Below, piece after piece: positions 15,803 through 17,695 of a stretch of DNA of 49,480 bases. Origin of the DNA: a bacterium (GTDB taxonomy: Bacteria > Bacillota_I > Bacilli_A > RF39 > UBA660); assembly GCA_029100545.1 (NCBI GenBank), contig JAQXPH010000039.1:1-49480 (forward strand), given 5' to 3'. A program made the translations under genes and the position numbers. Under the pieces are notes generated by a model. The model searched no databases and was not told the DNA's origin. It saw only the letters and a list, made by a program, of their open reading frames with translations. Numbering within the stretch: the stretch's first letter is position 1; each line of letters begins with the position of its first letter.

Positions 15803-15826
15803 CCTCGCGAAAGGGTTTTCGCGAGG
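15803..15826. other. Perfect 10-bp hairpin 3' of a putative DGR variable repeat (candidate DGR recognition hairpin)
   Basis: CCTCGCGAAA-GGGT-TTTCGCGAGG; no T-tract on either side; 42 nt past the stop codon of 15869..17695. Confidence 0.6.
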
Positions 15827-15868
15827 ACTTGTTAGTGATAAGCGCACGGCACCTACTTCCTTCTTCCC

Positions 15869-17695
15869 CTATTCTATCAAATATGGCGAAGTATATGACC
15901 CATTTCCTGAAATATACCTGGTGCCAGGTTTTAAAGAAACAGACGGCCGGACCCCGCGAGAAGCGCCCATGCTGCTACTACCCATGCTACCCGAACTAGA
16001 GACGCTACGCCCGCCAGCATAGAAAAAGTTGAAGTATCGAGGAGACCCAAGCAAATAATTCTGTCCTGTATTTAAATAATATGTGCTATCACTTGCGTCT
16101 TTATAAGCAAGCCATACTTCTGGGGCTGTAAGTAAACCTACTGGATATTTTAGTGGTGCTTTTGTATTTCCTACTCTAAACTGATCAGTAACACTACCAC
16201 ATACTAAACTATAATTTGTATTATAATTTTTAAATTCTAAATAACTTGATGAACCAATTGTACTTCCACCATTTGGATTCCAGCCATTTAAATTTAATAT
16301 ACTTCGGTCATTGCAATAAGTTGTATCTTCAAGATATGAGGTATATGCTGTCATATTATTTTCATACCAAGTTTCTATATATGTTTTCATAGTGGAATCA
16401 GTTTTATTTACATCATCAGCGTATAGCATTTCATTTAAAGCATCACCCACAGATTTACCACCCGTAAGCGTTATATAATATGCATTTGAAGAAAGAGTAT
16501 AATATACATAATATAAAGACGAGCAAGTAGTACTTGTAGTAAAACACGTATAATGATTATTATTTATTGCACTATAACCATCTGACCAAGTTGCTACTGT
16601 CATTGTATCAGCAAGTGTATAAGTACCATCTGAATATGTAAATGAATTACCAAATACTATATTAGATAATTCTGAACTTGATTTATATGAGATAGTATAC
16701 ACTGTATTATACATATAACCTACATATGCTGGAGAATCATAACTACTATTAAATGCACTTGTTCCTATTTGAGAATCAGTTCCTGTGTTATTGCATGAAC
16801 CATTTGTTTGAACTCCGTTATAAATTAATTTAACTCCACCAGTATCTGTTGTTCTAACTATTTTCCAGCAAAAGCCCCCAAATAAAACATTATTATCTTC
16901 AACAGCGCCATTATAATAATATACGGGATTTGCATATGTATCTGATCCTTCTCCATCATAAAGCTTTACAAATGTATTTCCTTCATTATATTTTGCTTGA
17001 ATAGTTTTATATAGATTTAATTTTTCTTTACTATCACAAGATAAATTATCTGCATAAATTTTACCTGTAAAACTTTTTCCTTCAAGTTGGGATTGAGATA
17101 AACTTAAATTATAATATTTACCTATAAATTTATAATTTTGTGTATTTTCATAACCAGTACTTGTAATTTGAGCACCACTAACTAAAACTTTTTTTGCTCC
17201 AACTGTACTAGTTTTTTGACTCCATCCATTTGAAGTATTAAAATCAAAATTTGTTTCATTTTCATAATAATTTGTTCCACTATTAGAAACTACTTGCATA
17301 GTTATTTCTTTATCTGCGCCACTTGTTTTATATGTTGCTCCATCCCCATAAATATTACTACCTAAATCATATTCAAAAACTATATCAAAACTGCAAACAG
17401 TAAGAACATTATTATGTCCTTTTAAAGTTACATTTAAAACTGCTTCATTTTTCGCAGCTTCTATTTCATCATTTGAATTAATTGGATTCATATTTAATGC
17501 AGGTACTTGTAAATTTAAAAAAGTTGCATCTGAAACAAAAGTAGCTTCACCTGGATCTTCAGTAAGAATATTTACTGCAACATTATTATTTACATCAATA
17601 TTAAAAGAACCAAAATAAGCAAATGCTGCCGTTGAAACTATAACAAGCAAAAATATAGAGGATATTATAATTTTTAATTTATTATTTTTTTCCAT
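15869..17695 (-). CDS. Exported TasA-like/SipW-type N-terminus fused to a C-terminal C-type-lectin-like domain; putative DGR target protein
   Basis: Signal region IISSIFLLVIVSTAAFAYFGSFN; LFGGFCWKIVRTTDTGG; tail SPRYFNFFYAGGRSVSSSGSMGSSSMGASRGVRPSVSLKPGTRY; 3' end is GC-rich and A-poor in an AT-rich genome. Confidence 0.75.
   Translation of the reverse strand: MEKNNKLKIIISSIFLLVIVSTAAFAYFGSFNIDVNNNVAVNILTEDPGEATFVSDATFLNLQVPALNMNPINSNDEIEAAKNEAVLNVTLKGHNNVLTVCSFDIVFEYDLGSNIYGDGATYKTSGADKEITMQVVSNSGTNYYENETNFDFNTSNGWSQKTSTVGAKKVLVSGAQITSTGYENTQNYKFIGKYYNLSLSQSQLEGKSFTGKIYADNLSCDSKEKLNLYKTIQAKYNEGNTFVKLYDGEGSDTYANPVYYYNGAVEDNNVLFGGFCWKIVRTTDTGGVKLIYNGVQTNGSCNNTGTDSQIGTSAFNSSYDSPAYVGYMYNTVYTISYKSSSELSNIVFGNSFTYSDGTYTLADTMTVATWSDGYSAINNNHYTCFTTSTTCSSLYYVYYTLSSNAYYITLTGGKSVGDALNEMLYADDVNKTDSTMKTYIETWYENNMTAYTSYLEDTTYCNDRSILNLNGWNPNGGSTIGSSSYLEFKNYNTNYSLVCGSVTDQFRVGNTKAPLKYPVGLLTAPEVWLAYKDASDSTYYLNTGQNYLLGSPRYFNFFYAGGRSVSSSGSMGSSSMGASRGVRPSVSLKPGTRYISGNGSYTSPYLIE
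15930..16050 (-). other. Candidate DGR variable repeat (VR)
   Basis: Coding strand from CTTGGGTCTCCT to GTCCGGCCGTCTGTTTCT: hand count about 13 A in 117 nt and about 57% GC, with many non-A-starting NNC/NNT codons. Confidence 0.6.

What the first reader, a model, noticed from the sequence alone, without database searches (positions are those of the whole stretch)
15803..16050. Orphan DGR-type variable repeat with recognition hairpin
The 3' end of ORF 15869..17695 is compositionally alien to its surroundings. Over about 117 coding-strand nt (CTTGGGTCT...GTTTCT) I count about 13 A and about 57% GC in a strongly AT-rich genome. Codons such as CGC, GGG, CGG, GGC and GTC sit in a C-type-lectin-like tail (SPRYFNFFYAGGRSVSSSGSMGSSSMGASRGVRPSVSLKPGT). 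A-depletion on the coding strand is what adenine-specific mutagenic retrohoming should leave in a VR. Downstream (15803-15826) is a perfect 10-bp stem with a 4-nt loop and no U-tract in either direction, while a proper terminator sits further on (15684-15717). DGRs such as that of Bordetella phage BPP-1 have such a hairpin just past the VR/IMH. No reverse transcriptase or template repeat is evident in the window, so this would be a remote target diversified in trans.
Basis: partly seen in the sequence, partly recalled or inferred. Interest (0 to 1): 0.9.

Follow-up and report, generated by a model that had tools for sequence, protein, structure and literature searches.

The report
Gene diversified by a distant retroelement
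The odd GC-rich tail of this surface-protein gene is a mutation cassette that an error-prone reverse-transcriptase system (a diversity-generating retroelement) elsewhere in the same gut bacterium's genome has rewritten, and the hairpin just behind it is a conserved marker found behind such target genes across the bacterial family.

Summary
The rest of the genome bin (57 contigs) holds one diversity-generating retroelement (DGR) on contig C31: target gene, hairpin, 117-nt template repeat (TR), Avd, and an RT with a C-terminal MutS-I domain. The window's variable repeat (VR, 15935-16051, minus strand) differs from that TR at 26 of 37 template A's but only 13 of 80 other bases (p=2e-8). Three other VRs sit on remote loci, beside housekeeping genes; with the window and the cassette's own target that makes five. 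Five strain-level orthologs of the window protein vary at all 16 TR Asn codons and hardly elsewhere. The hairpin (15803-15826) occurs exactly five times in the genome, once behind each VR. Across the family it recurs about 75-140 nt past VRs, with a covarying stem and a conserved apex. An apex-only scan of 380 genomes gave 30 hits, 27 of them behind VR-type gene tails. Corrections: the hairpin lies 108 nt past the VR, and its loop differs from the phage GRNA consensus. The window's VR also carries old, mostly silent non-A drift, so current rewriting is likely but unproven. Verdict: a real DGR target acting in trans, a new member of a known kind, with a divergent recognition hairpin.

The parts
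15935..16051 (-). Variable repeat (VR), 117 nt, near the 3' end of the target ORF
   Evidence: Aligned to the C31 TR: 26/37 template A positions changed against 13/80 non-A positions, Fisher p=1.7e-8; 26 A-to-N against 2 N-to-A changes, p=3e-6
15803..15826 (-). Recognition-type hairpin, 10-bp perfect stem, ACCC loop, 108 nt past the VR and 42 nt past the stop
   Evidence: Five copies in the genome, one per VR, none for the reversed control pattern; covarying stem across the family; 27 of 30 apex hits in 380 genomes lie behind VR-type gene tails
15869..17695 (-). Target gene, 608 aa: N-terminal membrane/secretion helix, beta-rich domain, C-terminal module with the VR
   Evidence: ORF; AlphaFold2 full-length pLDDT 79.8, C-terminal module pLDDT 89.4 and pTM 0.87
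15800..17029 (-). Target module shared with the four other targets (about residue 222 to the hairpin), fused to different N-termini
   Evidence: Pairwise blastn: 86-87% identity over about 1 kb to the C31a, C31b, C33 and C37 targets, plus 90-93% matches of 200-226 bp at its upstream end (to C31b and C37), ending at or within about 45 nt of the hairpin
15684..15717 (-). Terminator-like stem-loop with T-run downstream of the hairpin
   Evidence: Read from sequence
17802..17877 (+). tRNA-Gln(CTG) upstream of the target gene, opposite strand
   Evidence: ARAGORN

Best explanation
The finding is the variable repeat of a remote (trans) target of a cellular diversity-generating retroelement (DGR). 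On contig C31 of the same genome a single DGR encodes its own target gene, a 117-nt TR, an Avd-like protein and an RT with a C-terminal MutS-I (MSL) domain. Inferred mechanism, by analogy with BPP-1: TR RNA is reverse-transcribed with errors at adenines, and the cDNA replaces the homologous 3' part of target genes. Each target carries a GC-rich IMH-like 3' end of the VR and, about 100 nt further on (just past the stop codon), a DNA hairpin that marks the gene for retrohoming. Five dispersed genes in this genome carry this VR-hairpin module on different N-terminal secretion domains, so one RT/TR can diversify a set of secreted proteins. Shown here: all parts, A-specificity, strain variation at TR-Asn codons, hairpin covariation and its association with targets. 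Inferred: retrohoming, the hairpin's role, secretion, and binding of variable ligands. That the window copy is still being rewritten is likely (about 0.65), not shown.
For: Genome-wide DNA search: four other copies of the 281-nt region plus the TR. RT with Avd between TR and RT. A-specific difference for every VR: C31b 19/37 A against 2/80 non-A (p=7e-10), C31a 18/37 against 6/80, C33 13/37 against 9/80, window 26/37 against 13/80, C37 23/37 against 28/80. The TR reads in frame with 16 AAY codons. Strain orthologs (87-90% identical): AAY codons 16/16 variable, mean entropy 1.80 bits, against 0.27 for A-free TR codons and 0.21 for residues 230-548. Hairpin: 5 in genome = 5 VRs; 19/31 DGR loci have a stem of at least 9 bp with a 4-nt loop, 0.015 expected from mononucleotide shuffles; covariation score 0.81 against 0.22 shuffled, 0/500; apex scan 30 hits against 4 control, 27 behind VR tails; association with RT-bearing genomes p=3e-4. 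Related cassettes in other genomes show TR/VR pairs with mostly 0-2 non-A mismatches per 60-70 nt.
Against: The window VR has 13 non-A differences from the present TR, 7 of the 10 in the first 108 nt at third codon positions, so it has not been overwritten by this TR recently, or it was written by a variant TR. Hairpin spacing (108 nt) and loop (ACCC) differ from the experimentally tested BPP-1 element (4-34 bp, GRNA; PMC3240598). The genome is a 57-contig bin, so the link between C39 and C31 rests on binning and on shared repeats. Strain variation was seen at protein level only.
Confidence: 0.93

Rival explanations
1. Relic target: the window VR was written by this DGR or by a lost sister DGR with a slightly different TR, but is no longer rewritten and is now conserved as an ordinary surface protein. 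(This is a variant of the best explanation, not exclusive of it.)
For: 13/80 non-A differences, mostly silent; the C37 copy is further gone (28/80) and sits beside a 154-bp, 97%-identical remnant of the RT 3' end, so whole cassettes have been copied and lost here. Remote targets with excessive mutations are reported in Treponema denticola (PMC4891356).
Against: The VR keeps its ORF, its 3' end and a perfect hairpin; five strain orthologs of this same gene differ at all 16 TR-Asn codons while most of the protein is conserved.
Confidence: 0.3
2. The hairpin is a transcript end or mRNA-stability element that travels with the module and has no role in retrohoming.
For: It lies 42 nt past the stop codon; conserved stems at gene ends are often transcriptional.
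Against: No U-run on the coding strand; a separate T-run terminator lies downstream; 27 of 30 apex hits in 380 genomes are behind VR genes and they track RT-bearing genomes; the loop is conserved while the stem covaries, the pattern BPP-1 needs (PMC3240598).
Confidence: 0.12
3. Variation at the tail comes from recombination among the paralogous targets, not from adenine-directed copying.
For: The five targets share long, 85-88% identical modules, enough for gene conversion.
Against: Changes are directional, 26 A-to-N against 2 N-to-A, and concentrated at TR-A positions; each VR has its own set of substitutions.
Confidence: 0.04
4. A foreign GC-rich segment or ordinary adaptive hypervariability unrelated to a DGR.
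For: GC 57% in a 24% GC window.
Against: The TR on contig C31, next to the RT, carries the same GC-rich backbone; the A-depletion is explained largely position by position by TR A's.
Confidence: 0.01

Closest known systems
Treponema denticola DGR with remote targets (TvpA family, up to 7 targets; PMC4891356)
   Same: One RT/TR, several dispersed targets in one bacterial chromosome, some with excess non-A mutations, cellular surface proteins
   Different: Accessory protein is HRDC there, Avd plus an RT-fused MutS-I domain here; FGE-sulfatase type VR domain there, DUF6273-like tail here; no hairpin is mentioned in that paper
Bordetella phage BPP-1 DGR and its IMH plus hairpin target element (PMC3240598)
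   Same: VR at the gene's 3' end, A-specific changes, GC-rich VR 3' end, downstream hairpin whose stem sequence varies but whose loop is conserved, Avd plus RT
   Different: Here the hairpin is 75-138 nt past the VR and outside the ORF (BPP-1 and phage relatives 4-34 bp); loop is ACCC, CTCT, CCCT or similar on the sense strand (phages GRNA); targets in trans; cellular, not phage
DGR RTs with an MSL (MutS-like) accessory domain (PF01624; PMC10053308 citing the earlier survey)
   Same: MutS_I match above the curated cut-off at the RT C-terminus (22.9 against 20.6 bits)
   Different: Nothing clear from what could be read here; the role of the domain was not tested
DUF6273 C-lectin DGR targets of gut phages (tentaclins PMC10743442; Faecalibacterium prophages PMC11792537)
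   Same: VR at the end of a DUF6273-type domain; in the model the VR falls on C-terminal beta strands
   Different: Here carried by chromosomal secreted-type proteins in a SipW-like context; DUF6273 matches are weak and found only in paralogs and homologs

Membership tests
Diversity-generating retroelement (DGR) | RT of the DGR clade | tested here: met
   C31 ORF of 495 aa: RVT_1 E=2.8e-13, PHROG reverse transcriptase E=3.9e-65, SIGAMSSQ and YMDD motifs; no tree of all RT classes was built. The other RT in the genome (C3) is DRT UG13b
Diversity-generating retroelement (DGR) | TR and VR near-identical except at TR adenines | tested here: met
   All five VRs against the C31 TR; the oldest-looking copies also carry non-A differences
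Diversity-generating retroelement (DGR) | Accessory protein (Avd, HRDC or MSL) | tested here: met
   118-aa ORF between TR and RT matches PHROG 'Avd protein of DGR' only weakly (E=0.0025); MutS_I (MSL) fused to the RT
Diversity-generating retroelement (DGR) | VR in the 3' end of a target ORF, AAY-rich TR in frame | tested here: met
   VR ends 21 codons before the stop; TR has 16 AAY codons in frame
Diversity-generating retroelement (DGR) | Population hypervariability at TR-A codons | tested here: met
   Protein level only, five strain orthologs
Diversity-generating retroelement (DGR) | Mutagenic retrohoming observed | not testable with these tools
   Needs an experiment
BPP-1-type target hairpin | 7-10 bp stem of variable sequence with 4-nt conserved loop downstream of the VR | tested here: met
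BPP-1-type target hairpin | GRNA loop on the sense strand, 4-34 bp from the VR | tested here: not met
   ACCC loop, 108 nt (PMC3240598)
C-type lectin variable protein | CLec fold holding the VR | tested here: inconclusive
   Confident model but no strong PDB match (best: Thomasclavelia IgA peptidase, prob 0.97, E=3e-3; Legionella Lcl C-terminal domain weak); viral library hits include DUF6273 proteins (prob 0.98, 0.94); DUF6273 found in 3 of 66 homologs at E<0.01

The most novel reading that the evidence does not exclude
This family of uncultured gut Bacilli (and related DGRs in gut Saccharibacteria) uses a distinct target-recognition element: a long-range hairpin with a pyrimidine-rich sense loop, placed outside the ORF about 100 nt from the VR. 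This lets one RT/TR address a dispersed and expandable set of secreted proteins, because any gene that captures the VR-hairpin module becomes a target.
Probability: 0.5. Interest if true: 0.75.

Novelty: new member of a known kind. Interest (0 to 1): 0.6.

Why it matters
Large DGR surveys that look next to the RT cannot see remote targets; Roux et al. 2021 say so of their own (PMC8144416). The hairpin apex found here behaves as a searchable tag for targets: 27 of 30 hits in 380 genomes lie behind VR genes, several on contigs without an RT. It suggests that tiny (about 1 Mb), uncultured gut bacteria keep a panel of diversifiable secreted proteins. It also gives a natural mutant series of the recognition hairpin (varying stem, loop and distance) for testing how DGRs find their targets.

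Tried and rejected
IMG/VR has no relative of the target protein, so there is no sign that the window gene is phage-borne; distant RTs there are only about 27-38% identical. The second RT of the genome (C3) is a DRT UG13b defence RT, not a DGR RT. The closest RTs found in genome contigs are 53-59% identical at best, too far to supply an alternative TR for the window VR. Pfam finds no domain in the window protein. The PDB fold search did not settle the fold. Synteny of the flanking gene in the genus gave no usable empty site. Rfam finds nothing convincing in the TR region. A strict rule linking loop type to RT class was dropped: G302 and G298, with short RTs, have ACCC hairpins. 12 of 31 DGR loci lack the perfect 9-bp/4-nt-loop hairpin; some have other hairpins at a similar place.

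Full report
1. The minus-strand ORF 15869-17695 ends in a 117-nt stretch (16051-15935) with 13 A and 57.3% GC, against 23.6% GC for the window. No other 117-nt stretch on either strand has fewer A. The hairpin CCTCGCGAAA|ACCC|TTTCGCGAGG is at 15803-15826. No RT or TR lies in the window.

2. The rest of the genome supplies the missing parts. The window is contig C39 of a 1.125-Mb, 57-contig bin. The 281-nt region has four other copies: C31:39797, C31:10039, C33:55277 and C37:4201. A shorter match at C31:40164 lies beside an RT. The C31 locus (L017 = C31:36500-45500) reads: target ORF with VR, hairpin, TR (L017:3669-3785), Avd-like ORF (3961-4317, PHROG Avd E=0.0025), RT (4277-5764, RVT_1 plus a MutS_I domain above its cut-off, motifs SIGAMSSQ and YMDD), then a XerD-like gene. 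The genome's other RT is DRT UG13b.

3. The differences are adenine-specific. Against the TR, the window VR differs at 26/37 A and 13/80 non-A positions (p=1.7e-8). The cassette's own VR differs at 19/37 and 2/80 (p=7e-10), C31a at 18/37 and 6/80, C33 at 13/37 and 9/80, and C37 at 23/37 and 28/80. For the window VR the direction is 26 A-to-N against 2 N-to-A (p=3e-6). The TR reads in the target frame as LGSPNNFNNNNANGRNVNSSGNMSNNNVNNSNGARLTIF, with 16 AAY codons. If each AAY codon can become any of 15 amino acids, that allows about 6.6e18 variants, a theoretical figure.

4. Strains vary where the TR predicts. Four database proteins are full-length orthologs of the window protein at 87-90% identity. 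In that five-member set all 16 TR-AAY codons vary, with mean entropy 1.80 bits. A-free TR codons average 0.27, residues 230-548 average 0.21 and residues 1-229 average 0.12. In a 66-member alignment the AAY columns average 3.26 bits, against 1.13 for A-free TR codons. Nucleotide data for these strains were not available.

5. The targets are dispersed and modular. The five targets share about 1-1.6 kb at 85-88% identity, ending at or within about 45 nt of the hairpin, on different N-termini. Judged by their sequences, they lie next to housekeeping genes: pnp-like (C31a), rimP/nusA-like (C33), mnmA-like (C37), and a tRNA-Gln with a priA-like gene here. C37 also keeps 154 bp, 97% identical, of the RT's 3' end shortly after its hairpin, so a whole cassette was probably copied or recombined there and then lost. 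Window neighbours include several SipW-like signal peptidases, which fits secretion (inference).

6. The hairpin is a real, conserved element. It occurs five times in the genome, once per VR, and never for the reversed control. Across related DGR loci, 19 of 31 have a perfect stem of at least 9 bp with a 4-nt loop 75-138 nt past the VR; mononucleotide shuffles predict 0.015. On ten distinct sequences all 100 cells pair, seven of ten pairs have compensatory changes, and the covariation score is 0.81 against 0.22 shuffled, with 0/500 shuffles reaching it. An apex-only 14-mer scan of 380 genomes gave 30 hits in 19 genomes against 4 for the control. By my count of the printed ORF tails, 27 lie behind a VR-type tail; two of the other three are at contig ends. 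Sixteen of the 19 genomes carry the RT (p=3e-4). One genome (G302) has five hits, two with near-identical upstream tails at contig starts. A gut Saccharibacteria DGR has the same kind of hairpin (L172).

7. What works like BPP-1, and what does not. In BPP-1 the stem's structure but not its sequence matters, the loop sequence matters, loops are GRNA on the sense strand, and distances are 4-34 bp (PMC3240598). Here the stem also varies with pairing kept and the loop is conserved. But the loop is ACCC, AACC, ACCT, CTCT, CTCC or CCCT, and the distance is about 100 nt. The purine-rich loop would be on the opposite strand. That the element directs retrohoming is inferred.

8. Is the window copy still active? 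It carries non-A differences, 7 of 10 within the first 108 nt at third codon positions, and C37 carries 19 of 27. This is silent drift, or writing by an older TR variant. The strain variation argues that the locus has been rewritten within the species. I put current competence at about 0.65.

9. Novelty. DGRs, remote targets (Treponema denticola, up to seven; PMC4891356), MSL domains (PMC10053308) and DUF6273 targets (PMC10743442, PMC11792537) are all known. New here, as far as the held literature shows, are the remote multi-target system in this family, the drift gradient among targets, and the long-range hairpin with a different loop. RT relatives occur in 169 of 390 family genomes. The papers found do not describe this hairpin type; subscription papers were not searchable.

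Noticed in passing
L020:4368-4607 (C37): Remnant of the DGR RT 3' end beside a strongly drifted VR: a decayed copy of the cassette.
   Followed up: partly
L074 (G365:C70), 937-1577: TR-like repeats appear in more than one copy upstream of an RT that contains a stop, with cysteine-rich VR coding; looks like a different target type.
   Followed up: no
G391 (same genus): About 40 paralogs of the target's N-terminal domain (about 220 residues) in one 1.1-Mb genome, with no DGR RT found.
   Followed up: no
L171-L178, L192 (gut Saccharibacteria): DGR RTs 40-49% identical to this one in a different phylum from the same ruminant-gut habitat, with TR/VR pairs in most and hairpins in several; possible cross-phylum transfer.
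   Followed up: partly
L017:3615-3660 and several related loci: Recurrent element just upstream of the TR (TTGGGTTAAAC...GTTTAATCTAGGATTA), possibly part of the TR RNA.
   Followed up: no
G000:C3:13900-15204 (L021:1901-3205): DRT UG13b-type defence reverse transcriptase next to a MazG-like gene.
   Followed up: partly
window 20074-47002: Several SipW-like signal peptidases, small secreted-type proteins with Y/F-A-W/Y-F-type signal ends, and a 2643-aa repeat-rich protein: a large secreted-fibre or adhesin region.
   Followed up: partly
G050, G139, G295: Hairpin hits in genomes where no RT was found (incomplete bins or orphan targets).
   Followed up: no
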